Shown here piece after piece: positions 42,396-64,000 of a stretch of 64,000 nucleotides of DNA; within the stretch, counting starts at the first letter, position 1; each line of letters opens with the position of its first letter. This DNA is from Streptomyces chrestomyceticus JCM 4735 (lineage in GTDB: Bacteria > Actinomycetota > Actinomycetes > Streptomycetales > Streptomycetaceae): positions 9,114,001 through 9,178,000 of the forward strand of contig NZ_BHZC01000001.1 in NCBI RefSeq assembly GCF_003865135.1, read 5' to 3'. The notes beneath the pieces are model-generated. The model had not been told where the DNA came from. It saw only the letters and a list, made by a program, of their open reading frames with translations, and ran no database searches. Both the position numbers and the translations under genes were made by a program.

Positions 42396-42791
42396 ATGCC
42401 GGAGCAGGAAAAGGGAACCGATTCCGCAGGTGCAGCGCCCCGAGGCACCGAGTCCGCGGGCACCGGGTCCGTCAGTACCGACGATCCCCCGGGGGCCGGT
42501 CCGTTCGGCCGGCATTCCACCGCCGGGCTGGAGAACGTGGCCCTGCTCGCCGTGGGCCTCGCGGATGTCGTGCTCGAACGGCTGCGTCACGCCGCGGAAC
42601 AGGGGCAGCAGTTGCTGCGCCGTTCCGATCTGCGGGAGCTCTTCGCCGACGGGGTGAACGACCTGTGTGCCCGCGGCGAACTGGCGTCCCGGCGTGCCGC
42701 GCCGGACACCGAGAACTATCTGGAGGTGATGGCGAGCCGCGCGGTGAAGCGGGCCGGGGAGGCCGAGACGTCCGGGCCGGCCCATGCATGA
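42396..42791 (+). CDS. Small protein preceding the polyprenyl synthase
   Basis: A protein of 131 residues starting 'MPEQEKGTDSAGAAPRGTES', behind GGGAG-rich sequence. The first ~45 residues are disordered. The rest is predicted helical ('AGLENVALLAVGLADVVLER' and 'RSDLRELFADGVNDLCARGE'). It overlaps the polyprenyl synthase gene by eight bases, so co-translation is expected. I do not recognise the family. A role as a subunit or partner of the synthase, or of the downstream oxygenase, is a reasonable guess. Confidence 0.65.
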   Translation: MPEQEKGTDSAGAAPRGTESAGTGSVSTDDPPGAGPFGRHSTAGLENVALLAVGLADVVLERLRHAAEQGQQLLRRSDLRELFADGVNDLCARGELASRRAAPDTENYLEVMASRAVKRAGEAETSGPAHA

Positions 42792-43860: not shown

Positions 43861-43885
43861 GGGCAACGAGAGAGATGAGGAAATC

Positions 43886-48166: not shown

Positions 48167-49471
48167 TCAGGTTTCCGGGCGGGAACTGGCCACCGCGGCC
48201 GACGCGAGAGCCAAACAGCCGATCATGATGAGTATTCCGGGAAGAGTGGCCCTTTCCGATCCGGCGACGGCGGTGGCCACGAGCGGGCTGAAGCTGGCAA
48301 TCGTCGCGCCGAGCTGATAGGTCACGGCCAGTGCCGAATAGCGCTGCTGGACGGGGAACATCTCGACCAGGAAGGAGGCGAAGGCACCGTACACCGCGGC
48401 ATGGCCGGCCCCCATCGCGAGGACGAAGGTCATGATGACCAGCCACGGTTCTCCCGAAGCCAGCCAGTAGGGCGCGGGAACCGCCACGAGTGCGCAGACG
48501 GTGTATCCGGACAGAATGACCGGGCGACGGCCCCACCGGTCGGACAGCGCCCCGAAAACCGGCAGCATCAGCGCTTCGGCCAACGCGCCGGCCGCGAGCC
48601 CCAGCAGCAATACCGAGCGGGCGGTGTGCTGTTGTCCGGCGGAGGCGGCGGTGAAGAGCTGGACCGTGAAGGTGCTGACGATCACGGCGAGACCGAGTGC
48701 GGCCAAGGCGCCGCGCACCACCTTTCCGGGGGTGTACCGCAGTACGTCCCGTACCGGCAGTGCCGACGCGGCCGTCGTCCTTTTCGCCCGTACGTACTCC
48801 GGGGACTCCGCCACCTTCCGCCGTACGACCACGCCCAGGATCACCAGGGCGATCGAGGCGAGGAACGGCAGGCGCCAGCCCCAGGCGTGGAGCTGTGGCT
48901 CCGGCATCCGGAGCACCAGCTCGATCACGGCGGTACTGCCCAGCAGCCCCAGCGGAAAACCGGCCGCGGGAAAGGCGGTCCACAGCCCTTTGCGTCCCGG
49001 CGGGGCGTACTCCGCGCTCATGAGTACGGCTCCGCCCCACTCCCCGCCGATGCCGATGCCTTGCAGAATCCGCAGCGTGACCAGTAACGCGGGCGCCAGG
49101 ATTCCGGCCTGCTCGTACGTCGGCAGAACGCCGACCAGAAACGTGGCGAGGCCCATCACGAGAAGGGTGAGGGCCAGCATGTTCTTGCGGCCGACGCGGT
49201 CTCCGAAGTGGCCGATGATCACGCCGCCCAGCGGCCGGGCCACGAACCCGGCCGCGTAGGTCGCGAACGTGGCCAGCACGGTCGCCGTCGTGGAACTCCC
49301 GGGGAAGAACAACGGCCCGATGATCAGCACGGAGGCCGTCGAGTAGAGGTAGAAGTCGTACCATTCGATGGCGCTTCCGACGGCGCTCGCCAGGAGGACC
49401 TGCCGGGTCGTGGAGCCGCTTCCGCGGGCGACTGCGTACTTCGGCCCGGTGGTGGCCGGCGAAGCATTCAA
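48167..49471 (-). CDS. MFS transporter, metabolite:H+ symporter (MHS) type
   Basis: A protein of 434 residues started at TTG 49471 behind AAGGAG. It has 12 predicted helices with the MHS signatures 'SAIEWYDFYLYSTASVLIIG', 'RPLGGVIIGHFGDRVGRKNM' and 'RILQGIGIGGEWGGAVLMSA'. MHS relatives usually import carboxylates or osmolytes, but several serve as antibiotic exporters in clusters. It is transcribed away from the amidinotransferase gene and may be the transporter of the second cluster. Confidence 0.87.
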   Translation of the reverse strand: MNASPATTGPKYAVARGSGSTTRQVLLASAVGSAIEWYDFYLYSTASVLIIGPLFFPGSSTTATVLATFATYAAGFVARPLGGVIIGHFGDRVGRKNMLALTLLVMGLATFLVGVLPTYEQAGILAPALLVTLRILQGIGIGGEWGGAVLMSAEYAPPGRKGLWTAFPAAGFPLGLLGSTAVIELVLRMPEPQLHAWGWRLPFLASIALVILGVVVRRKVAESPEYVRAKRTTAASALPVRDVLRYTPGKVVRGALAALGLAVIVSTFTVQLFTAASAGQQHTARSVLLLGLAAGALAEALMLPVFGALSDRWGRRPVILSGYTVCALVAVPAPYWLASGEPWLVIMTFVLAMGAGHAAVYGAFASFLVEMFPVQQRYSALAVTYQLGATIASFSPLVATAVAGSERATLPGILIMIGCLALASAAVASSRPET

Positions 49472-49717
49472 GGGAACTCCTTCCGGGAACAATACGGCGT
49501 GCGGGTGCGGTCGCCGGCCGGAAAGCCGGAGCCCGGGGAAAACCCGGGGACGGCTGTCGAGGGCGCCTGTTCATTCGGATGACGGAGCTGTCGCGGCGCG
49601 TGCTACCGGTTTTACTCCGGTTTCCGGACGACTGTCCAGAGAGCCCCGGGCGCCCTTGCCGACGGCCGTCCGGCCGTGGCTTAATCCAGGAAATGTCCAC
49701 GGGCCAGGGAGAGTTAC

Positions 49718-50140
49718 GTGAACGCTGATCCGGAAACGCCTGACGTCTGGACCGTGGACGACGGTTCGGAAGTAATATGTCTGCGTCGTTGGAAAGGCAC
49801 CTGGGACCCGGACGACCGGCATGCGAACTTCAAGTCGGACGTCGTCGCCTACGGACTGCTCGACCCGCTGGTGACGGTGCGCGGCATGTCCCGCAACCTG
49901 GACATCCCCGTCGGCGCCATCGTGCGCTACGTGCTCGCCAAATGGGCCACGGGAGGCAGCGGCGGCCTGCTGGAGATCGGACCGGTGATGGTGCCCCGGT
50001 TGTGGGAGCCGATCGCGGCGGCGGAGGAGAAGGACGACGACGAGGCACGCCTCCAGGCGTACCACCAACTGCGCCAGATGATCTCGTGGTTGAAGGTCCC
50101 GCTGGACGACCCCACGGTGTATCCGCCGCAACGCGACTGA
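49718..50140 (+). CDS. Conserved hypothetical protein (DUF6027-like)
   Basis: A protein of 140 residues from GTG 49718 behind GGGAGAG. A conserved core 'HANFKSDVVAYGLLDPLVTV' then 'LDIPVGAIVRYVLAKWATGG' and 'YHQLRQMISWLKVPLDDPTV' matches, as I recall it, the streptomycete DUF6027 family, whose role is unknown. It is soluble, with no cofactor motif. It is 75 bases upstream of the amidinotransferase-fold gene on the same strand. Confidence 0.75.
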   Translation: MNADPETPDVWTVDDGSEVICLRRWKGTWDPDDRHANFKSDVVAYGLLDPLVTVRGMSRNLDIPVGAIVRYVLAKWATGGSGGLLEIGPVMVPRLWEPIAAAEEKDDDEARLQAYHQLRQMISWLKVPLDDPTVYPPQRD

Positions 50141-50215
50141 CAGCGGCGGCCCCGGAGGGGTCCGAGCGCCGTATCACCCCCGCGTTTTCAGGGCCGACGA
50201 AGGTTGGAGGGCTGA

Positions 50216-51241
50216 GTGGAACGGACCGGTCGATACGGTGGCACGACCGCGCTGCGCCAGGCCACGCGCCAGGCCACGCCGAGCGACTTGGGCGGTGCCG
50301 GCTGGGTGCCGCGCACCGCGGCGCATCACGAGGAAGTGGCGGCGGGAACGCTGTGGCACCGGTGCGGTTACCGGTCGGAGGTGGCCCCGCTGCGGGAGGT
50401 GGTGCTCGCCCGTCCGCCGGACAGCCTGGAGCGGGCCGGTGACGCGCCCGGCGGCCACCTGATGTCCGCCAGGGTGGACCTGGGGCGGATACGGGAGCAG
50501 GCGGACGCGGTGGCCGAGGCGTACCTCCGGCACGGTGTGACCGTCCACCTCGTCCGGCCGCCCGCGCACGCGGGGCCCAACCTGATCTTCATGCGGGACC
50601 TCTTTCTCGCGACACCGCAGGGCGTGGTGCTGGGCCGTCCCGCCTCCGCGCAGCGGGCGGGCGAGGAGCGCTTCGCGGCCGTCGCCCTGGCCGCCCTCGG
50701 CGTCCCCCTGCTGAGAACCCCGGCCGGCACCGCCACCTTCGAGGGCGCGGACGCCCTGTGGCTGGGGGCGGACACGGTCGTGGTGGGCTGCGGCTTCCGC
50801 ACCAACCCGGAGGGCGCGGCGGTCGTCGGTGACGAACTGGCACGCCAGGGCGTGCGGACCGTCGTCGTACCGCTCGGCCCCGGGGTGCAGCACCTCCTCG
50901 GTTCGCTGGTCTTCGTCGACCACCGGCGCGTACTGCTGCACGCGGCGGCGGCCACCACCGAACTGCGCGCCCTTCTGCACCAGCACGGATACGAGGTGAT
51001 CGAACTGCCGGCGGAGGACGAGGTGGTGCGCAGGCGGGCGATGAACCTGGTCACGCTCGCGCCGGGGGTCGTGCTGATGCCCGCGGGCTGTCCGGACACC
51101 CGGCGGCGTCTGGAGGCGGCCGGCCTGCACGTGGACACCGTTGACGTGGGGGAGTACGTGAAGGCCGCGGGGGCGCTCGGCTGTCTCACCGGCATCCTGC
51201 TGCGGGACGACGCCGGCGCGCCGGCCGGGAGGAAGCCGTGA
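50216..51241 (+). CDS. Amidinotransferase/arginine-deiminase-fold enzyme
   Basis: A protein of 341 residues from GTG 50216 with GGAGG upstream. Guanidino-modifying fold signatures: 'NLIFMRDLFLATPQGVVLG' (NxxFxRD), 'ATFEGADALWLGADTVVVGC' (FEGxD), 'PGVQHLLGSLVFVD' (catalytic His region) and 'GALGCLTGILL' (catalytic Cys). It could transfer an amidino group, deiminate or dimethylamino-hydrolyse. An amidinotransferase gene is part of nucleocidin-type clusters, and here it heads a two-gene unit overlapping the FAD enzyme by GTGA. It may act in the nitrogen chemistry of the sulfamate (inference). Confidence 0.87.
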   Translation: MERTGRYGGTTALRQATRQATPSDLGGAGWVPRTAAHHEEVAAGTLWHRCGYRSEVAPLREVVLARPPDSLERAGDAPGGHLMSARVDLGRIREQADAVAEAYLRHGVTVHLVRPPAHAGPNLIFMRDLFLATPQGVVLGRPASAQRAGEERFAAVALAALGVPLLRTPAGTATFEGADALWLGADTVVVGCGFRTNPEGAAVVGDELARQGVRTVVVPLGPGVQHLLGSLVFVDHRRVLLHAAAATTELRALLHQHGYEVIELPAEDEVVRRRAMNLVTLAPGVVLMPAGCPDTRRRLEAAGLHVDTVDVGEYVKAAGALGCLTGILLRDDAGAPAGRKP

Positions 51242-52659
51242 ACCGGAACGCGGTGTCGGTGGCCGTCATCGGCGGCGGGGCCAGCGGAACCCTGGCCTGC
51301 GCCCACCTGCTGGAGGCGAGCGCGGCGTCGCGCCGCCCGGTACGGATCTCGCTGATCGAGCCGTCCGACGAGCTGGGCCGCGGCACGGCCTACGCGTCGC
51401 CCGACCCCCGGCACCTGATGAACACGCCGATGGAGCGCTCCGGCGCCTGGGCCCATGACCCCGGACACCTCGCCGCCTGGCTGCGGCGCCGGGACCCGGA
51501 CACGCCCTCCGGCCACTACCCGCCTCGCGGTACGTACGGCGCCTACCTGGCCGACACGCTGCGCGAGACCCGGGAGCGCACGGCGGAGACCGGGGAGCTG
51601 TGGCATGTGCGCCGCCGCGCGCGCCGGGTGCTTCCCGGCCTTCCGCGGCCGGTGGTGGCATTGTCCGACGGCCGGTGTGTGGCGGCGGACCGTGTCGTGT
51701 TCGCCATGGGGAACGCGGCCACCTGGCGCGACCCGTTCCCTTCGGCGCAGGCCGGAGCGCGGTACGTACGCTCTCCCTGGCACAGTGGCCTCCCGGCGGT
51801 GGCGGACCATTCCTCGGTGCTGCTGCTGGGGAACGGACTGACCGCTGTGGACATCGGGCTCAGCCTGCTCGGCGGCTCGGGCGTACGCGTCGACGCCGTG
51901 TCCCGGCACGGGCTGCTGCCCCGGCCGCACGGCGCCGGATGCTCGCACGGCGGGCATCCGAACGTCGCGGGCACCCTGCTGGCGGACGACCGGCTCACCT
52001 TGGGGCGGCTCGTGAGCACGGTCCGCTCCGAGATGCGGCGGAGCCCGGAATGCTGGCGGGAGATCATCGACGCGCTGCGGCCCTGCGCCGGCGAGTTGTG
52101 GGGCCGGCTCGACGCCGACGACCAGCGGGACTTCCTGGGACGCTTCGGTACGTACTGGGACGTGCACCGCCACCGGCTGCCGCCCGCCACCGCCCACCGG
52201 CTCGGCCGCGCGCTGGGCTCGGGACGCCTGAAGGCCCGTAAGGGGCGGGCGGCCTATCTGCGCGCATGCCCGCGCGGGGTCATCGCCGGGCTCGACGTCG
52301 GTGCCGGGCCGGTGCCCGTGCGCTACGACTGGGTGATCAACTGCACCGGCTTCGGGCGGGACATCACCGGTTCGGCCGACCCGCTGCTGTCCTGGCTGCT
52401 GCGGGACGGGCTGGCCGTACCCGACTCCCTGCGGCTGGGCATGGCCACGGACCGCCGCGGACGGCTGCTGGACCACGCGGGGCGGCCCGATCCGGCCCTG
52501 CTGGCCATCGGGCCGCTGCGGCGGGGCTCGCAGTGGGAGACCACCGCCATACCGGAGATCCGCGCGCAGGCCGCTCAGCTCGCGGACGACATCCTCGGCT
52601 CACCGGTCTCCGGGCCGGCGGAACTCCTTCACCAAGGGGGACCGGTCTCGTCGTTCTGA
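51238..52659 (+). CDS. FAD/NAD(P)-binding oxidoreductase
   Basis: A protein of 473 residues. The N-terminal dinucleotide fold 'VAVIGGGASGTLACAHLLEA' binds FAD. A second nucleotide site is 'SSVLLLGNGLTAVDIGLSLL', and 'WVINCTGFGRDITGSADPLL' is the usual late strand. This is the PF13454-type FAD-NAD(P) protein (YdhS-like). 'ASPDPRHLMNTPMERSGAWA' is a family hallmark. It may oxidise a nitrogen or carbon centre of the pathway. Its stop lies 31 bases inside the end of the opposing sulfatase-fold gene. Confidence 0.85.
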   Translation: MNRNAVSVAVIGGGASGTLACAHLLEASAASRRPVRISLIEPSDELGRGTAYASPDPRHLMNTPMERSGAWAHDPGHLAAWLRRRDPDTPSGHYPPRGTYGAYLADTLRETRERTAETGELWHVRRRARRVLPGLPRPVVALSDGRCVAADRVVFAMGNAATWRDPFPSAQAGARYVRSPWHSGLPAVADHSSVLLLGNGLTAVDIGLSLLGGSGVRVDAVSRHGLLPRPHGAGCSHGGHPNVAGTLLADDRLTLGRLVSTVRSEMRRSPECWREIIDALRPCAGELWGRLDADDQRDFLGRFGTYWDVHRHRLPPATAHRLGRALGSGRLKARKGRAAYLRACPRGVIAGLDVGAGPVPVRYDWVINCTGFGRDITGSADPLLSWLLRDGLAVPDSLRLGMATDRRGRLLDHAGRPDPALLAIGPLRRGSQWETTAIPEIRAQAAQLADDILGSPVSGPAELLHQGGPVSSF

Positions 52660-53801
52660 CGGGAGGACACGGTCCGGCCGCGCAGCTCGTCGGGGTCGGC
52701 GGCCAGGTCGTACTGTTCGACCCGGTCGCCGCCGATCTGCCAGATGACCTTCTGGCGGCTCTCGCCCTCGCACAGCCGGACCGACGCCAGGGGCAGCAGA
52801 CCGGGGAAGCGCCCGTCCGACCGCCGCTCCTCCGGGTGGTACGTCTCGGAGTAGGCCGGCCGGGCCGCAGGCGTCCGCTCACCGAAGAACTCGGTGAGCG
52901 AGCGGCCGTCGGGACCGTCCTTGTACGGGTCCAGCCCCAGCAGCTCCAGGACGGTGGGGGCGATGTCCACCAGCCGGACCTGTTCGGTGATCTCACGGCC
53001 CCGGGGTACGCCAGGTCCGCCGACGATGAGCGGAACGTGCTGCGTCGTGTCGAACAGCAGGCACCCGTGCCCCTCCTCGTAAGGGTGACCGAGATCGCCG
53101 GAGTGGTCGTTGGGATACCAGCCGGCCAGGTCCTCCCCGTGGTCGGAGAAACACACGACCAGCAGGTCGTCGAGCGGGTGCCCGGCCTCCTCCAGCCTGC
53201 GGAAAAGCAGTTGGAGGTAGTGGTCGCTGTACGCCACCTCGCCCTCGTAGGGGTTGGCGGCATCGGGGCAGAAGTCCTCCGGGGGCTCGTACGGCCAGTG
53301 GGCGTCGAAGAAGTGCGCGAACAGAAAGAAGGGGCCCTCCTGGCGTGCCGCCCAGGCCGCCGCGCGGTCCGCCACCAACGGCGCGCGCTTGAGCGCCAGG
53401 CCGCGCAGCTTGACGTCGTTGACGGTGAGGGGGTCGCTGCCGTCGGGCAGCCGGGGGATCTCGTCGTCGTAGTGGTCGAAGCCGCGGTCCATGCCGTACC
53501 ACCGGTTGAGCCCCGGGCAGGACACCACCGCGCCGGTGGCGTACCCCGCCGCTCGCAGACGTTCCGCCAACGTCGTGGTGTCCGGCCGCAGTTGCTCGCG
53601 CAGTAGATGACGGATGCCGTGCCGGGCCGGCTGCAGGCCGGTGAACACACTGGCATGGCTGATCGGGGTCAAGGGGGCGGACGAGATGGCCTGCCGGAAG
53701 GTCGTACCCCGTCGGCGCAGTGCTTCGATCCCGGGCATCTTCCCGGAGTAGGCCACGTCCGCCCGAACGGTGTCGAGGGAGATGAGCACGAGACTCGTCA
53801 C
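52629..53801 (-). CDS. Sulfatase/alkaline-phosphatase-superfamily protein without the formylglycine motif
   Basis: A protein of about 390 residues. Metal ligands are recognisable in 'VLISLDTVRADVAYSG' and 'VVCFSDHGEDLAGWYPNDHS'. Where active sulfatases have C/S-x-P-x-R, this protein reads 'APLTPISHASVFTG', with Thr in place of the formylglycine Cys/Ser and no Arg. ATG 53810 overlaps GGAAGG directly, so GTG 53801 (MTSLVLISL) with a spacing of nine is preferred. Sulfatase-like genes are required for sulfamate formation in nucleocidin producers, so a transferase or atypical role fits better than sulfate ester hydrolysis. Confidence 0.82.
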   Translation of the reverse strand: MTSLVLISLDTVRADVAYSGKMPGIEALRRRGTTFRQAISSAPLTPISHASVFTGLQPARHGIRHLLREQLRPDTTTLAERLRAAGYATGAVVSCPGLNRWYGMDRGFDHYDDEIPRLPDGSDPLTVNDVKLRGLALKRAPLVADRAAAWAARQEGPFFLFAHFFDAHWPYEPPEDFCPDAANPYEGEVAYSDHYLQLLFRRLEEAGHPLDDLLVVCFSDHGEDLAGWYPNDHSGDLGHPYEEGHGCLLFDTTQHVPLIVGGPGVPRGREITEQVRLVDIAPTVLELLGLDPYKDGPDGRSLTEFFGERTPAARPAYSETYHPEERRSDGRFPGLLPLASVRLCEGESRQKVIWQIGGDRVEQYDLAADPDELRGRTVSSRQNDETGPPW

Positions 53802-53908
53802 GGTCGGCATCCTTCCGCTTACACGTAGATCCGCTGTTGATCGGCTATTGACTGAACGTGCCTAGACTGGTGGACGACCTTGGAGGAGTACTTCTGAGGA
53901 GGTCGCTG

Positions 53909-54946
53909 TTGCAAGACCTCGGCAATGTGCGTGAACCCGGACCGGCCGAAGAATCCCTGCACCTGGTGTCCTTGAAGGAACTGCGCAGCTCGACCGATTC
54001 CCCCCGCTCCGGCGGACTCAACCGTGAGCACGTGGAACTGCTGCTCGCCTCCGGAGCGAGCCTTCCTCCCATTCTCGTACACCGTCCCACCATGCGGGTG
54101 CTGGACGGAATGCACCGGCTCCAAGTGGCGGTCCAGCGCGGCGACCGGACCATCCGCTGCATGTTCTTCGACGGCTCCGAGGCGGATGCCTTTGTCCTGG
54201 CGGTGGAGAGCAATGTGCGGCACGGACTGCCGCTTTCCCTGGAGGAACGCACTGCCGCGGCGACACGCATAGTACGGTCCCACCCCCATCTTTCCGACCG
54301 GTCCGTGGCCCGGGTGAGCGGTCTGTCCCCCAAGACCGTGGCGGCCGTCCGGCGGCGTTCGAGTGAGGAAATTCCCCACTCGAACACGCGCGTGGGCAAT
54401 GACGGCCGGACCCGGCCACTGGACATGGCGGAGTTACGGAAGTCGGCGGCCCGGGTGATGAGGGACCACCCTGGCATGCCGCTGCGAGAAGTGGCCACCA
54501 CCGTCGGGATTTCCCTGGGGACGGCACACGATGTGCGTGAACGGCTGCGTTCGGGCCGGGATCCGGTGCCGGTGCGCTATCGTGAAGTCTCCGCTCCGGC
54601 GAGCAAGCGCAAGAACGCGGCCGGGCGCCCCACGCCGCAGTCGGGAGACCGGAAGCCGGCGGGGAAGACCACCGGCGGGCAGCCCGTACCGGATATCTCG
54701 GAGCTGCACCGCACCCTCAAGAAAGACCCTTCGATCCGTTTCACCGAAATGGGTCGGACGCTCTTACGGCTGTTCGACGCGCAAGAGCTGCTCATGGAGG
54801 CAGGTGGCCACCTCGTGGACGGTGTTCCGCCGCACTGGGCGGAAATGGTGGCCGAACTCGCCGACGGCTGTGCGGATTCATGGCGTGAATTCGCCGACCA
54901 GGTGCGCCGGATCGTGGTGCCGGACGACCGGCAGGCCAGCGGATAA
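53909..54946 (+). CDS. StrR-like ParB/Srx-fold pathway regulator with two TTA codons
   Basis: A protein of 345 residues started at TTG 53909 because GAGGAGG lies seven bases upstream; GTG 53858 is in frame. The N-terminal ParB-like domain ('GASLPPILVHRPTMRVLDGM' then 'HRLQVAVQRG', 'AVESNVRHGLPLSLEERTAA') and HTH ('SDRSVARVSGLSPKTVAAVR') match StrR/NovG activators. A second HTH-like part ('LREVATTVGISLGTAHDVRE') follows. TTA codons at 54434-54436 and 54764-54766 predict bldA dependence. It precedes the radical SAM gene and is likely the cluster's direct activator. Confidence 0.88.
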   Translation: MQDLGNVREPGPAEESLHLVSLKELRSSTDSPRSGGLNREHVELLLASGASLPPILVHRPTMRVLDGMHRLQVAVQRGDRTIRCMFFDGSEADAFVLAVESNVRHGLPLSLEERTAAATRIVRSHPHLSDRSVARVSGLSPKTVAAVRRRSSEEIPHSNTRVGNDGRTRPLDMAELRKSAARVMRDHPGMPLREVATTVGISLGTAHDVRERLRSGRDPVPVRYREVSAPASKRKNAAGRPTPQSGDRKPAGKTTGGQPVPDISELHRTLKKDPSIRFTEMGRTLLRLFDAQELLMEAGGHLVDGVPPHWAEMVAELADGCADSWREFADQVRRIVVPDDRQASG

Positions 54947-54977
54947 GGACACATCACCTGGCAACTAGGGAGGACTC

Positions 54978-56654: not shown

Positions 56655-57730
56655 ACGCGACACCGGGGCCGGAGAGCCCGATCTTCATCATCGGCACCGA
56701 ACGGTCCGGGTCGAACCTGCTGCGCCTGATCCTGGACGCGCATCCACGGATCTGCGTCCCGCATCCGCCGCATTTCATGCGCTACCTCGCGACGCCCGCC
56801 GGCTCCTACGGCGACCTGAGCGTCGAGGCCAACCGCCGGAAGGCCGCCGAGGACGCCGTAGGGCTGCTGCGACGGCACATCCACCCCTGGCAGCACACGA
56901 TCGACCCGCAGCGCGTGGTGGAGGAGGCGGCCCCCACCCTGTTCGGAGTGGTGGCCGCCGTGTACGACCAGTACCGGCAGGCCGAGGGCGCCGCGCGCTG
57001 GGGGTGCAAGAGCACCTTCATGGTCGACCACGTGGACGAGGCGCTGGCCCACTTCCCCGAGGCACGCTTCATATGGCTGGTCAGAGACCCCTGCGACGTC
57101 GGTTCCTCGGCCAAGCGGTCCATCTTCGGCTACAGCCATCCCTACCGCATGGCCCACCTGTGGCGGCGGCAGCAGGAGCAGGCCCGGGCCGCGCTGTCCA
57201 AGTGGGGGCCGGACTCGGTCCATCTGCTGCGCTACGAGGACCTGGTCTCGCGCCCGAGGGAGGAGATCGAGCGGCTCTGCTCCTTCCTCGCCGAGGAACC
57301 CCACCCGGCCATGCTGGAACACCACCGGTCGCCGGCCGCCCGTCACACGGCAGGGTGGGCCGAAGCCTGGCGGAACGCCGGGACACCGGTCACCACCGAC
57401 CGGATCGGCGCCCACCGGTCCGGCCTGACCCCGGGCGAGCGCCTGCTGGTGGACAAGGTGACGGGGCCGCTGAAGAGCGGCCTCGGCTACCCGGTCCATC
57501 CCGACGCGCACGCCTGCCCCACCCCCTCCCCGGTGGAGCTGGCCGTGCGGTCGGCGGCGCTGCGGCTGCGGGTGGAGTTCCGGTCGCTGAAGCAGGACCG
57601 GAACTACGCCCTGCGGCTCGGCAGGGACGTCTACGTGCGGTGGCTGCGGGTCAGGGCGCACGCCCGGGTCCACCTCCGGCGCGGGCACGCCATGACCGCA
57701 CCGGTCGCCGCCCGGCGCAGCGCCGCCTGA
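56651..57730 (+). CDS. PAPS-dependent sulfotransferase
   Basis: A protein of 359 residues. The 5'-phosphosulfate loop is 'IFIIGTERSGSNLLRLILDA' and the 3'-phosphate segment is 'ARFIWLVRDPCDVGSSAKRS'. 'VHLLRYEDLVSRPREEIERL' is the usual late motif of the Sulfotransfer family. It overlaps the radical SAM gene (ATGA). It likely transfers sulfuryl to a nucleoside-type intermediate, or an alternative sulfuryl acceptor in the sulfamate route. Two sulfotransferases (NucK, NucO) occur in nucleocidin clusters, and the second here is at 61019. Confidence 0.9.
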   Translation: MNATPGPESPIFIIGTERSGSNLLRLILDAHPRICVPHPPHFMRYLATPAGSYGDLSVEANRRKAAEDAVGLLRRHIHPWQHTIDPQRVVEEAAPTLFGVVAAVYDQYRQAEGAARWGCKSTFMVDHVDEALAHFPEARFIWLVRDPCDVGSSAKRSIFGYSHPYRMAHLWRRQQEQARAALSKWGPDSVHLLRYEDLVSRPREEIERLCSFLAEEPHPAMLEHHRSPAARHTAGWAEAWRNAGTPVTTDRIGAHRSGLTPGERLLVDKVTGPLKSGLGYPVHPDAHACPTPSPVELAVRSAALRLRVEFRSLKQDRNYALRLGRDVYVRWLRVRAHARVHLRRGHAMTAPVAARRSAA

Positions 57731-57800
57731 CACCCACCCGGCCGGCCCCGAGCGCGGGCGGCTGTGACGGAACCGGAGCACACGAGAGGGAGGTCCTTCC

Positions 57801-58595
57801 TTGCCGATCACGCGGGATGACGTGACCGAGCACTTCAGAATGCGTGCCGCCACTTACGACCGGTCCAGTTCCTGGTGCACCGACCAGGGACTCGGCGAGA
57901 TCGTCCTCGACCTGGGCGCCCCGGCACCCGACGCCCGGGTCCTGGACGTCGCCTGCGGTACCGGCCTGGTCTCCCGCCTCTTCGCCGGGCGGGTGGCCGA
58001 GGTGGTCGGCCTGGACCTTACGGCGGAGATGGCGGAGCAGGCCGCGCCGTTCCTGGACCGGCTGGTGGTGGCACCGGCCGAGAAACTGCCCTTCGACGAC
58101 GGCGAGTTCGACCTCGTGGTGTGCCGGCAGGGCATGCAGTTCATGGACCTGCCCGACGCCGTCGAGGAGATGGTGCGGGTCGTACGCCCCGGCGGCCGGG
58201 TGGTCCTGGTGAACCTGTGCGCGTACGGGCCGCACGACCGCGACACGTACTTCGAGATCCTCCGGCTGCGCAATCCCGTACGCCGCCACTTCTTCCTCCC
58301 GGAGGAGCCGGCGGAACTCCTCCGCGCGGCGGGCTGCGATCCGGTGCACACCCGCCGCCACATCTCCGCCGAGGACGTGGACGTCTGGTCCGACAACGGC
58401 GCCATCGGCCAGGAGCGGCGCGAGGCGATCCGGGCCGCCTACCGGGACGCCACCGAGGAATTCAGGTCCCTGCACGCCGTCCGGGAGGCGGCCGGCCGGA
58501 TCGTCGACCACATGCTGTTCGTCGTGGCGGCGGGGACCAAGCCGGCCGCATCGGGCGGCGGAGCCGGTGAGGAGCCCCATGCCACAGCCAAGTGA
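57801..58595 (+). CDS. Class I SAM-dependent methyltransferase
   Basis: A protein of 264 residues started at TTG 57801 behind GGGAGG. SAM motif I is 'VLDVACGTGLVSRLFAG', motif II 'AEVVGLDLTAEMAEQA', motif III 'LPFDDGEFDLVVCRQGMQFM' and motif IV 'MVRVVRPGGRVVLVN'. The C-terminal ~25 residues run into the ferritin-like gene (17-base overlap). The acceptor is unknown. It resembles the methyltransferase module fused to GyrB at 60.3-61.0 kb in overall order. Confidence 0.9.
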   Translation: MPITRDDVTEHFRMRAATYDRSSSWCTDQGLGEIVLDLGAPAPDARVLDVACGTGLVSRLFAGRVAEVVGLDLTAEMAEQAAPFLDRLVVAPAEKLPFDDGEFDLVVCRQGMQFMDLPDAVEEMVRVVRPGGRVVLVNLCAYGPHDRDTYFEILRLRNPVRRHFFLPEEPAELLRAAGCDPVHTRRHISAEDVDVWSDNGAIGQERREAIRAAYRDATEEFRSLHAVREAAGRIVDHMLFVVAAGTKPAASGGGAGEEPHATAK

Positions 58596-59052
58596 GAGCC
58601 TGGCGGCCGAACTGCGCGCGGTGTTCGCCGCGGAGGCCACCACCGCGCTGCGCTACGCGTACTTCGCGCAGATAGCCGAGACCGAAGGCCACACCCAGAT
58701 CGCGGAGCTGTTCACCGACCTGGCCGACAGCATCACCTGTGCCGCGCACGGCCACCTCGACGTACTGCGCGACGCCACCCCCGCCACGGGCTTCCGGGAC
58801 GTGGGGGACACACCGCTGAACCTGGCCTCGTCCGTGACGGCCGCCCTGGAGCAGTCCGGTGAGACCTACCCGAGGCTGACCGCCGCCGCACTCGACGAGG
58901 GCGGCGCGGACCTGGCGAGCTGGCTCACCACGCTCATGGCGCTGAAGAAGAAGCACACGGCCCGGCTCGACGCCGCACTGCAGGAGATGGCCCGTCACTC
59001 GGACGAACCCGCCGGTGACCCCGCACTCACGGGAGTCCGCAATGACGGATGA
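58579..59052 (+). CDS. Ferritin-like/rubrerythrin-like helical protein
   Basis: A protein of 157 residues started at ATG 58579 with GAGGAG just upstream. 'VFAAEATTALRYAYFAQIAE' followed by 'TEGHTQIAELFTDLADSI' strongly resembles the first half of rubrerythrin, including the first Glu and the TEG glutamate. The E-x2-H of the second metal half-site is replaced by 'SITCAAHGHLDVLRD', leaving His but no Glu. The helix pair 'DLASWLTTLMALKKKHTARL' is the third/fourth helix. A mononuclear or altered di-iron site is possible. Its stop overlaps the GyrB-like gene by 11 bases. Confidence 0.72.
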   Translation: MPQPSESLAAELRAVFAAEATTALRYAYFAQIAETEGHTQIAELFTDLADSITCAAHGHLDVLRDATPATGFRDVGDTPLNLASSVTAALEQSGETYPRLTAAALDEGGADLASWLTTLMALKKKHTARLDAALQEMARHSDEPAGDPALTGVRNDG

Positions 59053-61011
59053 TCTGCGGGCGGCCGCGGCCGCCACCTACGACGCATCGGCGATCATGGT
59101 CTTCTCCGGGCTCGAAGCGGTACGCCGCAACCCGTCGATGTACATCGGCTCCACCGGCCCCGACGGCCTGCACCACCTGGTCTTCGAACTGCTCGACAAC
59201 GCCGTCGACGAACACGAGGCGGGCCACGCCCACGAGCTGACGGTCACCCTGCACACGGACGGCTCCTGCACGGTGGAGGACGACGGACGCGGCATCCCGG
59301 TCGACGTCCACCAGGACACCGGCCGCCCGGCCTGCGAGGTCGTCCTCACCACCCTCCACGCGGGCGGCAAGTTCGGCGGCTCGGCCTACAGCCGTTCCGC
59401 CGGGCTGCACGGCGTCGGCGTCTCCTGCGTCAACGCCCTGGCCGAGTGGCTCCGGGTGGACATCCGGCGGGACGGGGTCCACCACTACCAGGAGTACTCC
59501 TGCGGCGAACCGCTGATGGAGCTGACGACGGCCGGGGCGGCGGACGGCAGCGGCACCCGCGTCACGTTCCGGCCGGACGCGCAGATCTTCGACACCCGCG
59601 CCTTCTCCGTACGGACCCTGACCGAACGGTTGCAGGAGATCGCCTTCCTGCACCCCGGACTCACGGTCGGGCTGACGGACCGGAACACCGGCACCCGGGC
59701 CCGTTTCTCGTTCGCGGAGGGGTACGCGGCTTCCTCGCCCACCTCAACCGGGGTGCCTCGGTGGTCCACCCCGAGCCGATCGTGGTCGACGCCACCGGGG
59801 ACCACAGCACCCTGGAACTGGCCTTCCAGTGGACGGAGGGGTACACGGAGGAGATCCGCAGCTTCGTCAACGGCGTCCGCACCGACCAGGGCGGCGCCCA
59901 CGTCGACGCGGTCCGCTCGGCGCTGGCCCAGGCCATCAACCGGTACGCCACCGCGCGCGGCATGCTGGACGCGCACCTCGGGGAGCGCATCACCACCGTC
60001 GACGTCCTCGAAGGGCTCACCGCCGTCGTCTCCCTGCGCATGGACGACCCGCGCTTCGACGGGCAGACCAAGAAGCGGCTGCAGAACCCCGAGGTGGGCC
60101 AGATCGTCCAGGAGGCCGTCGACAGCGAGTTCAGCCGTCGGATGGAGAAGGACGAGGAGCTGGGGCGGCGGATCGTGGCCCGGGTCCTGGACGCCACCCG
60201 CGCCCGGCTCGCCGCGCGGCTGGCCGGCCGTACCGCCCGTGTGCAGCGCCGCGACCTCGCCATCGACTACACCGTCTACCAGCGGCAGTTCGGTATCCGC
60301 TCCCGCAACTGGCACGACTCCTGCGCCTGGCTGACCGACGGCGACCTGCTCGCCCGGCACGCCGCACTGTGCGAGGTGCCCGCCGACGCCCGGATGCTCG
60401 ACGTGTGCTGCGGCAGCGGTGTGGTGGGCGCCTCCTTCAAGGACCGGGTCGGGGAGACGGTCGGACTGGACATCACCCCCGAGATGGTCGCCCTGGCCTC
60501 CACCCGGCTCGACCGCGTGGACCAGGGCACGGTCTACGACCTGCCCTATCCGGACGACTCCTTCGACCTGGTCGTCACCCGGGAGGTGCTGCACCTGCTC
60601 CCGCAGCCCGAGCGCCCGGTGTCGGAGATCTTCCGGGTGCTGCGGCCCGGCGGGCAGTTCATCGTGGGGCAGATCGTCCCGTACGCGGACGAGGACGCCT
60701 TCTGGATGTACCGCGTCTTCAAGAAGAAACAGCCGCTGCTGCACCAGATGTTCCGCGAGCAGGATTTCCGTTCCCTGCTCCTCGGCGCCGGATTCCAGGA
60801 CGTCCGGATGACCGAATACCTGCTGTGGGAGTCCATCGACCAGTGGATCGACACGCACGAGACCACCCCGGCGCACCGGCGGGAGATCCAGCGGCTGTTC
60901 TACGAAGCGCCGCGTGAAGTGCGGGAAGTCCACCCGTTCGAGGTGCTGGCCGACGGTTCCATCAACGACCAGTGGCGCTGGTGTGTCTATTCGCTGCGGA
61001 AACCGCGGTGA
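59042..61011 (+). CDS. GyrB ATPase-transducer module fused to a SAM methyltransferase (internal frameshift)
   Basis: From ATG 59042 about 226 residues match the GyrB GHKL ATPase ('MVFSGLEAVRRNPSMYIGST', N-box 'VFELLDNAVDEHEAGHAHEL', 'DDGRGIPVDVH', 'GGKFGGSAYSRSAGLHGVGV'). At the GGGG run 59719-59722 the frame changes, and the transducer domain continues as 'FLAHLNRGASVVHPEPIVVD' to the 'FDGQTKKRLQ' QTK loop and 'VLDATRARLAARLAG'. No TOPRIM follows. Instead, from about 60250 a methyltransferase begins ('RMLDVCCGSGVVGASFKDRV', 'ETVGLDITPEMVALA', 'FDLVVTREVLHLLP'). One missing G, or a -1 slip, would give a single protein of about 656 residues. Function unknown. Confidence 0.8.
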
Positions 61012-61018
61012 TGGCCGG

Positions 61019-62368
61019 ATGACCACGCATTCAGTCAGTGCACCGCAGGGGCTCGGTACGCTGCACCGGCGCCTGGACGTGCTGCGGCCCCTGCGCGGCC
61101 CTGCCGTGCCGGATTTCCTCGGCCGGGTCGGCGAGGTCGTGGTGCTCGCGTGTAGTTCCCGCGGCGGCTCCAGCATGGTGGCCGAGCTGCTGCGGTACTC
61201 CCGCGAACTGCTGCATTTCCAGGCGGAGACCAATCCTTTTCTCCGCCTGGCCGGGCTCGGCCACCCCGAAAGCCGTACCGGCTCCGACGCGCTGGGCTCC
61301 GAGCACGCGGCCGCGTTGGAGCCCTGGGCCCGCTCGATACTTGCCGAGGAAATGGCGCGGGACGCGGGAAGCGCGGCCCTGGAGTGCGACGAGAACCAGC
61401 TCTGTGCCGACATGGCCTGGCGGCTGATCGTGCAATGGCCGGAACTGCCGCTGGAGCCCCTGGAACTCGTCGAGACGGTCCGCCGCGCGTGGCGGGCACG
61501 TCCGTACCGCTGCTCCACGGGCGCGCCGGGGGAGTCCGACGAGGCATGGTGCCTGCTGGCCGTACTGGAGGAATTGTCCGGGCGGGGTCTGCCGGTCGAT
61601 CCGCGGTACTACGACCTGCCGAAAGAAGCCAGGCGCGGATACCCGTCGCCGGCCACCGGACTGCGGGCGCCGGGAGACTTTCTCGTGGAGGAGCCGCCGT
61701 TCGTCGTGGCACGTCCCTGGCGCCGCGCGGACCTCGCCGACCTGCGCGACAAGCCCCTGGTCGTCAAGACACCGAGCAACGCGTACCGCCTGCATTTCCT
61801 GCGGTCGCTCTTCCCGCAGGCGCGCTTCCGGGTGCTGCACCTGACCCGCAATCCGGCCGCGGCCGTCAACGGCCTCTACGACGGGTGGCGCCATCACGGT
61901 TTCCACGCGCACCGGATGGAGAAACCCCTGGGTATTCACGGGTACGTCGAGCAGCACGAGGACAACCAGTGGTGGTGGAAGTTCGACCTGCCACCCGGCT
62001 GGGAGGAGTACACCGGCGCGCCACTGGCCGAGGTCTGCGCGTTCCAATGGCGCAGTACCCACGAGGCGGTACTCGGCCATCTCGCCGACGCGTCGGTCGA
62101 CCGCATGACCGTCCGGTTCGAGGACCTGACCGCGAGCCCGGCCAGTCGGATCGCCTCCTTCGAGAAGCTGAGCGAATGGCTCGGCATTTCCCTGACCGGT
62201 GACTTCCGGCGGGCGGTGCACCACGGCATCCGGCCGGTCGTGGCGACCGCACGGCCGCGGGAGTGGCGCTGGAAGGAGCGTGCGGCGTTGATCGAGCCGG
62301 CCATCGACCGGAAAACCGCCGACACGGCCGAGCGCCTCGGCTACGGGGACCGGTCGGAATGGAGATGA
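61019..62368 (+). CDS. Sulfotransferase-like protein, long form
   Basis: A protein of 449 residues from ATG 61019, which follows the methyltransferase stop by seven bases. The nucleotide loop is 'VVVLACSSRGGSSMVAELLR' and the 3'-phosphate segment is 'RFRVLHLTRNPAAAVNGLYD'. A late 'RMTVRFEDLTASPASRIASF' matches the family. An insertion of about 130 residues between loop and core (with 'EDLVETVRR'-like helices) makes it longer than usual sulfotransferases. It probably pairs with the enzyme at 56651. Its end overlaps the APRT gene by ten bases. Confidence 0.85.
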   Translation: MTTHSVSAPQGLGTLHRRLDVLRPLRGPAVPDFLGRVGEVVVLACSSRGGSSMVAELLRYSRELLHFQAETNPFLRLAGLGHPESRTGSDALGSEHAAALEPWARSILAEEMARDAGSAALECDENQLCADMAWRLIVQWPELPLEPLELVETVRRAWRARPYRCSTGAPGESDEAWCLLAVLEELSGRGLPVDPRYYDLPKEARRGYPSPATGLRAPGDFLVEEPPFVVARPWRRADLADLRDKPLVVKTPSNAYRLHFLRSLFPQARFRVLHLTRNPAAAVNGLYDGWRHHGFHAHRMEKPLGIHGYVEQHEDNQWWWKFDLPPGWEEYTGAPLAEVCAFQWRSTHEAVLGHLADASVDRMTVRFEDLTASPASRIASFEKLSEWLGISLTGDFRRAVHHGIRPVVATARPREWRWKERAALIEPAIDRKTADTAERLGYGDRSEWR

Positions 62369-62904
62369 CGCCGCTGGCCACGTGGCTGGCAGGCTATATC
62401 CGCGATGTGCCGGACCACCCGTATCCCGGTGTGCTGTTCAAGGACTACGCCTCTCTACTGGCCGATCCGAGAGCGTTCACCGCACTCGTGGACGCCCTGG
62501 CCGACGTGTGCTGCCGCCGCGAAGCCACCATGGTCGTCGGTCTTGAGGCCCGCGGATTCCTGCTGGGCGCGCCGGTGGCCGTACGGTCCGGACTGGGACT
62601 CGCGGTCATCCGCAAGAGCGGCAAACTGCCGGGCAAGACATTCCGCCGGGTCTACGAACTGGAATACGGGACGGACGAGTTCGAGCTCCAGTGTGACGCC
62701 CTGGGGCCGAAGGACCGGGTGGTCGTGGTCGACGACGTACTGGCGACGGGGGGCACCGCCCTGGCGGCCGCGTCCTTGGTGGCGGAGGCGGGGGCGGACG
62801 TCGTCGGCGTGGCTTTCATGCTGGAACTGGTGGCACTGTCGGGACGCCGCCGGCTGGCACGCGACCTCGACGGGGTGCCCGTGGACGCCGTGATCGACGC
62901 GTGA
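62359..62904 (+). CDS. apt: Adenine phosphoribosyltransferase
   Basis: A protein of 181 residues from ATG 62359. The type I PRTase PRPP motif 'VVVVDDVLATGGTALAAASL' is intact, and 'HPYPGVLFKDYASLLADPRA' with 'GLEARGFLLGAPVAVRSGLG' and 'IRKSGKLPGKT' are diagnostic of APRT. It condenses adenine with PRPP to AMP. Inside a sulfamoyl-nucleoside-like cluster it could set up or salvage the adenosine scaffold, in addition to or instead of a housekeeping copy. It overlaps the sulfotransferase gene, so it belongs to this operon. Confidence 0.95.
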   Translation: MEMTPLATWLAGYIRDVPDHPYPGVLFKDYASLLADPRAFTALVDALADVCCRREATMVVGLEARGFLLGAPVAVRSGLGLAVIRKSGKLPGKTFRRVYELEYGTDEFELQCDALGPKDRVVVVDDVLATGGTALAAASLVAEAGADVVGVAFMLELVALSGRRRLARDLDGVPVDAVIDA

Positions 62905-62916
62905 GGGGCGGAGCCG

Positions 62917-63888
62917 ATGCGGGCAGTGGGCGAAGAAGGGGCCTCCACGGCCACCGGGGCAGCCGGTCCGGACGGCACCGGCGGCCCTTCGGTCCGTTCT
63001 CTGGCCTACCTCGACGTGCTGGAATCCGAGTCGGTGCACATTCTTCGCGAGGTGGCCGGAGAATTCGAGCGGCCGGTCATCCTCTTTTCCGGCGGCAAAG
63101 ACTCGATTGTTGTGCTCCATCTGGCGCTGAAGGCTTTTGCGCCGGCTCCCTTGCCTTTCGAGCTGCTGCACGTGGACACCGGCCACAATTTCCCGGAAGT
63201 CATGGACCACCGGGACCGTACCGTGGCCGTGCACAGACTCCGGCTGCGGGTCGCCTCCGTACAGCGGTACATCGACGAGGGGAAGCTGCGCGAGCGCCCG
63301 GACGGTACCCGCAACCCGCTGCAGACGGTGCCGCTGCTGGACGCCATCGCGGCCGGCCGGCACGACGCGGTGCTCGGCGGCGCCCGGCGGGACGAGGAGA
63401 AGGCGCGCGCCAAGGAGCGGGTGTTCTCGCTGCGGGACGACTTCGGCGCGTGGGACCCCCGCCGGCAACGGCCGGAACTCTGGGAGCTGTACAACGGGCG
63501 GCACGCCCCCGGCGAACATGTGCGCGTCTTCCCGCTGTCCAACTGGACCGAACTGGACGTGTGGCACTACATCGCCCGGGAGAAGGTCGAGCTTCCGGAC
63601 ATCTATTTCGCCCACGAACGCACGGTGTTCCGCCGCGACGGCATGTGGCTGTCACCGGGGGAGTGGGGCGGGCCGAGGAAAGGCGAGACCGTGGAACGGC
63701 GGACGGTACGGTTCCGGACGGTCGGCGACATGTCGTGCACCGGGGCGGTGGACTCCGACGCCCGGACGGTGGAGCAGGTCATCGCCGAGATCGCGGCGTC
63801 ACGGCTGACCGAGCGGGGTGCCACCCGGGCCGACGACCGGATGTCCGAGGCCGCGATGGAGGACCGCAAGCGCGAGGGCTACTTCTGA
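62917..63888 (+). CDS. cysD: Sulfate adenylyltransferase subunit 2 (CysD)
   Basis: A protein of 323 residues. The PP-loop 'PVILFSGGKDSIVVLHLALK' and family blocks 'LLHVDTGHNFPEVMDHRD', 'AVLGGARRDEEKARAKERVF' and 'PLSNWTELDVWHYIAREKVE' identify ATP-sulfurylase catalytic subunit CysD. An N-terminal tail of about 35 residues precedes the usual start. It makes adenosine 5'-phosphosulfate, normally with the GTPase CysN, which is expected beyond the window end. A cluster-borne copy indicates a dedicated supply of activated sulfate for the two sulfotransferases. Confidence 0.95.
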   Translation: MRAVGEEGASTATGAAGPDGTGGPSVRSLAYLDVLESESVHILREVAGEFERPVILFSGGKDSIVVLHLALKAFAPAPLPFELLHVDTGHNFPEVMDHRDRTVAVHRLRLRVASVQRYIDEGKLRERPDGTRNPLQTVPLLDAIAAGRHDAVLGGARRDEEKARAKERVFSLRDDFGAWDPRRQRPELWELYNGRHAPGEHVRVFPLSNWTELDVWHYIAREKVELPDIYFAHERTVFRRDGMWLSPGEWGGPRKGETVERRTVRFRTVGDMSCTGAVDSDARTVEQVIAEIAASRLTERGATRADDRMSEAAMEDRKREGYF

Positions 63889-63936
63889 TGTGACACCACG
63901 CTGGCCGCCCTTCGCCGGTGGAATCGGAGGTACTGA

Positions 63937-64000
63937 GTGGTATCGCCGGAGTGTCCGATAAAAGGAGCTTCGGTGACGCATCGGCGATTGCCGGACAGCG
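63937..64000 (+). CDS. 5' end of a gene cut by the window edge
   Basis: GTG 63937 has GGAGG six bases upstream and opens a frame reading 'MVSPECPIKGASVTHRRLPDS' to the edge. A second in-frame GTG at 63973 has AAAGGAG and may be the true start. The first residues do not resemble the usual CysN start, so I do not name it, although CysN or an APS kinase is expected here from context. Confidence 0.5.
   Translation, partial: MVSPECPIKGASVTHRRLPDS

What the first reader, a model, noticed from the sequence alone, without database searches (positions are those of the whole stretch)
48167..64000. Probable sulfamoyl-nucleoside (nucleocidin/ascamycin-like) cluster
Seen: amidinotransferase fold (50216), sulfatase fold (52629), radical SAM (54978), two sulfotransferases (56651, 61019), APRT (62359) and CysD (62917), with an MFS transporter and a StrR-like activator. 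Known, from memory: in nucleocidin producers a radical SAM gene (nucJ), sulfatase genes (nucG, nucI), an amidinotransferase gene (nucN) and two sulfotransferase genes (nucK, nucO) are needed for the sulfamoyl group or for fluoronucleoside formation. Inference: this window encodes a relative, possibly a fluorinated or otherwise altered sulfamoyl adenosine. The extra methyltransferases and GyrB-like module are not features that I associate with those clusters, so the product may be new.
Basis: partly seen in the sequence, partly recalled or inferred. Interest (0 to 1): 0.9.

Follow-up and report, generated by a model that had tools for sequence, protein, structure and literature searches.

The report
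Sulfamoyl-adenosine antibiotic cluster without fluorination genes
This stretch of a soil bacterium's genome holds the known gene set for attaching the rare sulfamate group to an adenosine-type antibiotic, as in nucleocidin and ascamycin, but not the two fluorination genes searched for; it is a new member of a known family and helps show how the sulfur-nitrogen bond might be made.

Summary
The window plus 6 kb beyond its right end carries relatives of all nine genes whose deletion abolishes sulfamylation in Streptomyces calvus (nucG, I, J, K, L, N, O, P, Q), with APRT, a CysD, MFS and antiporter genes and two regulators. Gene order follows the nucleocidin cluster; a 23-kb block matches S. monomycini at 92.5% DNA identity. 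Fluorination genes orf(-3) and orf2 were not found in the genome, although the orf(-3) search finds it in S. sulfonofaciens, which looks like an unreported carrier of fluorination genes. Extra genes (B12-radical SAM H, HAD T, kinase Y, flavoenzyme X) point to a differently decorated, non-fluorinated sulfamoyl adenosine. The nucP-like gene is split between two frames here. New for mechanism: NucN is closer in sequence to DDAH/arginine-deiminase hydrolases than to amidinotransferase, and the 'sulfatases' NucI and NucG carry Thr at the expected formylglycine position. The S-N chemistry proposed from this is inference. New member of a known kind.

The parts
45623..48109 (+). SARP/AfsR-type regulator, likely left edge of the cluster
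   Evidence: BTAD, AAA/NB-ARC and TPR domains, NCBIfam AfsR below cut-off; homologue next to R in S. calvus, S. carminius, S. sulfonofaciens and NBRC 110035
48167..49471 (-). MFS transporter (R, acmR/nucR-like)
   Evidence: Pfam MFS_1; 63% to the S. calvus gene at the same place; one TTA codon; nucR not essential (PMC10946740)
49718..50140 (+). DUF6027 protein (M, acmM/nucM-like)
   Evidence: PF19492 1.2e-70; 80% to S. calvus; nucM not essential (PMC10946740)
50216..51241 (+). Guanidine-modifying enzyme (N, acmN/nucN-like), called amidinotransferase in print
   Evidence: 67% to S. calvus; PDB profile ranks DDAH 2.7e-22, ADI 5.6e-15, AGAT 0.006
51238..52659 (+). FAD/NAD(P)-binding enzyme (X), an addition to the nine-gene core
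   Evidence: PF13454 7.5e-33; 40% homologue just downstream of the PNP gene in S. calvus; no PDB relative at 0.01
52629..53801 (-). Sulfatase-fold enzyme with Thr at the nucleophile position (I, nucI-like)
   Evidence: PF00884; 80% to S. calvus; Thr in 16 of 16 rows that hold the motif
53909..54946 (+). Helix-turn-helix regulator (S)
   Evidence: HTH_24 and HTH_23 over cut-off; 55% to S. calvus at the same place; two TTA codons
54978..56654 (+). B12-binding radical SAM enzyme (J, nucJ-like)
   Evidence: PF04055 and PF02310; 84% to S. calvus, 99% to S. monomycini; CxxxCxxC in 23 of 23 rows
56651..57730 (+). PAPS-type sulfotransferase (K, nucK-like)
   Evidence: Sulfotransfer_3 5.2e-40; P-loop TERSGSN in 21 of 21 rows that hold the region, one of 22 lacking it
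57801..58595 (+). SAM methyltransferase (L, nucL-like)
   Evidence: Methyltransf_11; 72% to S. calvus
58579..59052 (+). Pseudo-rubrerythrin (Q, nucQ-like)
   Evidence: PF02915; 62% to S. calvus
59042..59722 (+). First piece of the nucP-like gene: GyrB-type GHKL ATPase
   Evidence: Frame of 59015; aligns to residues 1-227 of the S. monomycini protein, 94%; the S. calvus protein has HATPase_c there
59761..61011 (+). Second piece of the nucP-like gene: GyrB transducer domain then methyltransferase, in another frame
   Evidence: DNA_gyraseB 2.5e-44 and Methyltransf_11; aligns to residues 241-656 of the S. monomycini protein, 98%
61079..62368 (+). Second, divergent sulfotransferase-fold enzyme (O, nucO-like)
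   Evidence: Sulfotransfer_3 1.6e-7; 58% to S. calvus
62359..62904 (+). Adenine phosphoribosyltransferase (V, nucV-like)
   Evidence: NCBIfam NF002636 2e-59, over cut-off; 61% to S. calvus; nucV not essential (PMC10946740)
62917..63888 (+). Cluster copy of sulfate adenylyltransferase subunit CysD (A, acmA-like)
   Evidence: TIGR02039 2.6e-135, over cut-off; an 83% DNA match at genome 2,057,818 is a second copy

Best explanation
A cluster of about 25 kb (window 45623 to about 70287) that makes a non-fluorinated 5'-O-sulfamoyl adenosine-type nucleoside. Shown by sequence: all nine genes that S. calvus needs for sulfamylation, an APRT, a CysD, export and regulator genes. Inferred: CysD with sulfate-activation genes elsewhere in the genome makes PAPS; APRT feeds adenine nucleotide; K (and perhaps O) transfers sulfonate from PAPS to a nitrogen acceptor; N, with the DDAH/ADI fold and intact catalytic Glu, His and Cys, releases or transfers the S-N unit, for example sulfamate from an N-sulfonated guanidine; J, L, P and Q prepare or unmask the acceptor; I and G, alkaline-phosphatase-superfamily enzymes with a Thr at the nucleophile position, act as transferases or phosphodiesterases that place the sulfamoyl group on the 5'-oxygen. 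H, T and X decorate the nucleoside, kinase Y may protect the producer by phosphorylation, R and U export.
For: All nine sulfamylation genes are present at 54-84% identity to S. calvus, in nearly the same order, AfsR R M N I S J K L Q P O V. Knock-out data for the nine come from PMC10946740. The group recurs around NucJ in relatives. N: PDB profile ranks DDAH and ADI far above AGAT; the catalytic Glu, His and Cys are invariant in 18 of 18 rows. I and G: Thr in 16 of 16 and 12 of 13 rows. No orf(-3) or orf2 found in the genome. At E 1e-20, G is found in 10 of 21 relatives' genomes and in none of the eight griseus-type ones, which fits a role in an acceptor-specific step.
Against: No metabolite evidence. 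The nucP-like gene is split over two frames in this assembly, so the path may be dead here, or this may be a sequencing error; S. monomycini has it in one frame. V, R, M, U were not essential in S. calvus (PMC10946740), so they say little about the product. The order of steps, the nitrogen acceptor and the roles of I and G are not tested; G was essential for sulfamylation in S. calvus, so G as a late step is a guess. NucN could still be an amidinotransferase, since the fold is shared and AGAT matches weakly (E 0.006). No structure model could be made: the server was full at all 13 tries.
Confidence: 0.85

Rival explanations
1. The product is a known sulfamoyl nucleoside (adenosine 5'-sulfamate or dealanylascamycin) and X, Y, H, T are resistance or accessory genes that add no new decoration.
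For: The ascamycin gene table also lists an H-like radical SAM (acmH, 453 aa), a phosphatase (acmT), an antiporter (acmU) and CysD (acmA) (PMC4257720). Three flavin-halogenase-like ORFs with a WxWxIP motif lie elsewhere in the genome.
Against: No acmD, E or F-like gene among the Pfam-scanned cluster genes; X and Y have no counterpart by name in the acm table; no halogenase near the cluster.
Confidence: 0.4
2. The pathway is dead in this strain because the nucP-like gene is frame-broken.
For: The GyrB ATPase half and the rest lie in different frames; nucP is essential for sulfamylation in S. calvus (PMC10946740).
Against: Both pieces are undecayed (94% and 98% to S. monomycini), as expected of a sequencing error or a very recent change; 21 of 22 relatives have the gene in one frame.
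Confidence: 0.2
3. The product is a fluorinated nucleocidin-like nucleoside.
For: Core and order resemble the nucleocidin cluster.
Against: No orf(-3) or orf2 homologue (best E 0.79 and 0.58), while the orf(-3) search finds 75-76% homologues in S. sulfonofaciens. orf3 was not searched for.
Confidence: 0.03
4. NucN is a true amidinotransferase that moves an amidino group to build the sulfamoyl nitrogen, as the literature suggests.
For: Annotated so in PMC4257720 and PMC10946740; shared fold and catalytic residues.
Against: PDB profile: DDAH 82 bits, ADI 58 bits, AGAT 19 bits; no AGAT hit at 0.001 with the single sequence; the seven NCBIfam hits are DDAH, arginine deiminase and arginine dihydrolase models, all below their cut-offs.
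Confidence: 0.35

Closest known systems
Nucleocidin (nuc) cluster, Streptomyces calvus T3018 (L032-L034, L051)
   Same: All nine sulfamylation genes, M, R, S, V, the SARP regulator, most of the gene order; a 40% homologue of X lies downstream of the PNP gene
   Different: Here no orf(-3) or orf2; no PNP-type gene among the scanned cluster genes; G moved downstream; CysD, Y, H and T added; the nine proteins 54-84% identical
Ascamycin (acm) cluster, Streptomyces sp. JCM9888/80H647 (published table only, PMC4257720)
   Same: By annotation and size: acmA, G, H, I, J, K, L, M, N, O, P, Q, R, T, U, V counterparts
   Different: No acmB, C, D, E, F or W counterparts among the scanned cluster genes; gene order differs; X and Y added. 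Sequence identity was not measured: I had no acm sequence in the collections used
S. monomycini NRRL B-24309 cluster (L012, L042)
   Same: Same genes, same order, 23 kb contiguous at 92.5% DNA identity
   Different: Its nucP-like gene is in one frame
Mangrovihabitans endophyticus cluster (L025, L035-L037)
   Same: Besides S. monomycini the only fetched cluster with H (74%) and T (49%); also Y (58%) and G (59%)
   Different: Carries NRPS genes; N only 39%

Membership tests
Sulfamoyl-nucleoside cluster (nuc/acm kind) | All nine genes needed for sulfamylation in S. calvus (G, I, J, K, L, N, O, P, Q) | tested here: met
   Each present at 54-84% identity; P is split over two frames here. Letters were assigned by domain, size and order; the paper's figure was not seen
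Sulfamoyl-nucleoside cluster (nuc/acm kind) | Sulfate activation to PAPS | tested here: inconclusive
   CysD in the cluster; APS kinase at 2,057,194 next to another CysD match at 2,057,818; CysN was not searched for
Sulfamoyl-nucleoside cluster (nuc/acm kind) | Product bears a 5'-O-sulfamate | not testable with these tools
   Needs metabolite analysis
Nucleocidin cluster | Fluorination genes orf(-3), orf2, orf3 | tested here: not met
   orf(-3) and orf2 not found in the genome; orf3, a common phosphatase type, was not searched for
Ascamycin cluster | Alanylation genes acmD, acmE, acmF in the cluster | tested here: not met
   None among the Pfam-scanned cluster genes; the rest of the genome was not searched for them
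Ascamycin cluster | Orthology of H and T to acmH and acmT | not tested
   No acm sequence at hand; only sizes and names compared
Formylglycine sulfatase (for I and G) | Cys or Ser that becomes formylglycine (motif recalled) | tested here: not met
   Thr at that position in 16 of 16 I rows and 12 of 13 G rows
Arginine:glycine amidinotransferase (for N) | Closest sequence kinship to AGAT | tested here: not met
   DDAH 2.7e-22, ADI 5.6e-15, AGAT 0.006
Arginine:glycine amidinotransferase (for N) | Amidino transfer activity | not testable with these tools
   Needs an enzyme assay

The most novel reading that the evidence does not exclude
The sulfamate nitrogen-sulfur bond arises by PAPS-dependent sulfonation of a guanidine nitrogen (K/O), and NucN, a DDAH/ADI-like hydrolase rather than an amidinotransferase, then frees sulfamate; the Thr-nucleophile enzymes I and G, which are not sulfatases, load it on the nucleoside 5'-oxygen. 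In this strain's lineage H, T, X and Y turn the result into a sulfamoyl nucleoside of a kind not yet isolated.
Probability: 0.15. Interest if true: 0.85.

Novelty: new member of a known kind. Interest (0 to 1): 0.5.

Why it matters
A 2021 review (PMC9113183, first of four parts read) says that beyond the report of the acm cluster no detailed biochemistry of sulfamate formation existed; no later mechanistic paper appeared in my searches of the open library, which lacks most subscription journals. Nucleoside sulfamates hijack aminoacyl-tRNA synthetases (abstract of PMC7613620 as shown in the listing). A cluster with the whole sulfamylation set and without orf(-3) and orf2 separates sulfamylation from fluorination. 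That NucN sits nearer to hydrolases, and that the two 'sulfatases' lack the sulfatase nucleophile, gives specific single-enzyme tests. The comparison also points to S. sulfonofaciens as a diverged lineage with nucleocidin fluorination genes.

Tried and rejected
Fluorinated product: set aside because orf(-3) and orf2 were not found. GyrB module as a self-resistance gene or a sign of novelty: rejected, it is NucP/AcmP (PMC10946740, PMC4257720). StrR-type operator (consensus recalled): 0 matches in the window. Palindromes in the spacers: among those printed none recurs between spacers. A charged pocket in NucN as a sulfonate site (DDAH Glu65 replaced by invariant Arg127): dropped as evidence, because arginine deiminase has the same Arg-Asp pair. 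H as a relative of a solved nucleoside enzyme: its only PDB hit is AprD4, E 1.1e-4. X and Y: no PDB relatives at 0.01. H in other genomes: only this genome among 396 of its phylum at 1e-40 and 395 relatives at 1e-20; neither draw showed S. monomycini, so these draws do not cover every carrier. Paper search with DDAH and sulfamate together: 0 papers; other paper searches. Structure prediction of N and G could not be run.
Full report
What is there. The window lies at 9,114,001-9,178,000 of a single-contig 9.38-Mb genome, so the sequence beyond 64 kb could be read. My gene calls with Pfam and NCBIfam scans give a cluster from the SARP regulator at 45623 to the antiporter ending at 70287 in window numbering: SARP, R (MFS, -), M (DUF6027), N, X (FAD enzyme), I (-), S (HTH regulator), J, K, L, Q, P, O, V (APRT), A (CysD), then beyond the window Y (APH-type kinase, L010:2071-2943), H (B12-radical SAM, L010:3262-4611), T (HAD, L010:4608-5297), G (sulfatase fold, L010:5469-6893) and U (Na/H antiporter, L010:7046-8287, -). 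Letters follow the acm/nuc naming, assigned by domain, size and order; X and Y are mine. To the left lies a polyprenyl/terpene synthase pair (42784-45136; the second named from recall, no NCBIfam hit).

Comparison with known clusters. The published acm gene table (PMC4257720, first two of four text parts read) and the S. calvus knock-out study (PMC10946740, parts 1-3 of 5 read; passages) supply the yardstick: nucG, I, J, K, L, N, O, Q and P are each needed for sulfamylation, and orf(-3), orf2, orf3 for fluorination. That paper also reports that a second group's gene disruptions of nucK, N and O abolished fluorometabolites altogether. One scan of public genomes with J gave 21 loci, among them S. 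calvus T3018 and S. monomycini. Against S. calvus the nine proteins are G 54, I 80, J 84, K 65, L 72, N 67, O 58, P 77, Q 62% identical. Order in S. calvus is AfsR R M G N I S J K L Q P O V, against AfsR R M N X I S J K L Q P O V A Y H T G U here. S. monomycini has the same genes in the same order, with 23 kb contiguous at 92.5% DNA identity. The J, O and N trees pair window and S. monomycini with strong support; the O tree places them in a starred eight-row group with S. calvus, S. sulfonofaciens, S. carminius, NBRC 110035, TP-A0356 and G172, apart from the griseus-type clusters (J tree 23 rows, O tree 20 of 22 with SM11 and the short myxobacterial row dropped, N tree 21).

Not fluorinated. 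The S. calvus gene at L033:5510-6166 is orf(-3): with an offset of 50 its His65, His67, His150, Tyr23 and Trp50 equal the published His115, His117, His200, Tyr73 and Trp100, and its S. sulfonofaciens homologues extend 50 or so residues further upstream. Neither it nor orf2 (L033:10339-11166, assigned by its place next to a histidine-phosphatase-like gene) has a homologue in this genome (best E 0.79 and 0.58). Among 23 cluster-bearing genomes each was found in 2, S. calvus and S. sulfonofaciens, orf2 in the latter only as pieces at contig ends; S. calvus also has a 33% orf(-3) paralogue elsewhere. Chlorination cannot be judged: no halogenase lies near the cluster, three flavin-halogenase-like ORFs with the recalled WxWxIP motif lie far away, and a 2026 review calls the published acm halogenase assignment questionable (PMC12945691, passages).

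The broken gene. NucP is a GyrB-type ATPase with a methyltransferase at its C-terminus (S. calvus protein: HATPase_c, DNA_gyraseB, methyltransferase). In the window the ATPase piece and the remainder lie in two frames. In relatives it is one frame in 21 of 22; the exception is Streptomyces sp. SM11. The two pieces are 94% and 98% identical to S. monomycini, so the break is an assembly error or very recent. The three GHKL ATPase motifs are recognisable in the 21 one-frame rows, with QNA for DNA in the first motif of the proteobacterial and the 'Bifidobacterium' MAG.

What the enzymes say about mechanism. NucN is called an amidinotransferase in print. By profile (18 of the 21 N sequences) the nearest solved structures are DDAH (82 bits), arginine deiminase (58) and 2-nitroimidazole nitrohydrolase (56); amidinotransferase comes last of 31 (19 bits, E 0.006). 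The positions aligned with DDAH Glu114, His162, Cys249, Asp66, Arg85 and Arg132 (roles recalled) are invariant in 18 of 18 rows as Glu176, His226, Cys323, Asp128, Arg147 and Arg195. I and G have Thr where sulfatases have the Cys or Ser that becomes formylglycine (recalled): 16 of 16 I rows that hold the region (18 aligned of 24; two truncated) and 12 of 13 G rows (13 of 14 aligned; the exception is a short second copy in S. lomondensis). By overall sequence both still match solved sulfatases best. So neither looks like a canonical sulfatase, and a transferase or phosphodiesterase role is likelier. At E 1e-20 G is found in 10 of 21 relatives' genomes and in none of the eight griseus-type ones, so it may be tied to the acceptor rather than to S-N bond making. 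From this I infer sulfonation of a guanidine nitrogen by K/O and release of sulfamate by N; no step of that is shown.

What is particular here. H was found only in this genome among 396 of its phylum and among 395 relatives; in the fetched clusters it is otherwise seen in S. monomycini and Mangrovihabitans (only neighbourhoods were checked there). A Y match of 48% identity or more occurs in 5 of 22 genomes; in the Myxococcota genome it lies on another contig number whose link to the cluster is unknown. CysD has an 83% DNA match beside an APS kinase at 2.06 Mb. TTA codons in R, S and U suggest bldA control, as PMC10946740 reports for the nucleocidin cluster. J matches at E 1e-180 occur in 12 of 392 genomes of the genus, this one included.

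Verdict. The interest lies in the mechanistic re-reading of NucN, NucI and NucG and in S. sulfonofaciens.

Noticed in passing
L049:3136-3942 (-), L086:11089-11889, contig ends of G003 C40, C29, C42 and C5: Streptomyces sulfonofaciens JCM 5069 carries two orf(-3) homologues (75-76%) with all five published active-site residues, orf1 and U homologues, orf2 pieces at contig ends, a glycosyltransferase homologue (66%) and all nine sulfamylation genes: a candidate fluoronucleoside producer. No paper in the library holds its name with nucleocidin or with a fluorin- word.
   Followed up: partly
L052:8857-16714 and L065-L067 (genome G172): In S. sulfonofaciens a second nucG and S copy, and in G172 the sulfamoyl core, lie beside GTP cyclohydrolase I and IMPDH/GMP-reductase-type genes; G172 also has a PTPS gene and a weak radical SAM hit. 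This resembles the tubercidin (7-deazapurine) set of PMC6112128 (passages), where 5'-sulfamoyl tubercidin of S. mirabilis is mentioned.
   Followed up: partly
L066:9171-13538, L036:4411-13974, L025:4928-9295: NRPS genes sit inside the sulfamoyl clusters of G172 and Mangrovihabitans; TP-A0356 has a gene of similar size that was not scanned. Peptidyl sulfamates are possible.
   Followed up: no
L017:13663-16419, L066:15423-16661, L052:7060-8391: HisRS-like genes lie in or beside sulfamoyl clusters (two in M. maritima, one each in G172 and the second S. sulfonofaciens locus): possible self-resistance or aminoacyl donors.
   Followed up: no
L028, L029, L031: NucJ and NucP relatives lie together in a proteobacterial MAG, a MAG labelled Bifidobacterium and a Myxococcota MAG, with Q in the first two and K and O in the first and last. 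The 'Bifidobacterium' NucJ pairs with the proteobacterial one (100/100, short branches), so that contig may be misassigned.
   Followed up: no
window 42784-45136: Polyprenyl synthase (NCBIfam family 2 encapsulin cargo model, below cut-off) and a terpene-synthase-like gene directly left of the cluster, probably a separate locus.
   Followed up: no
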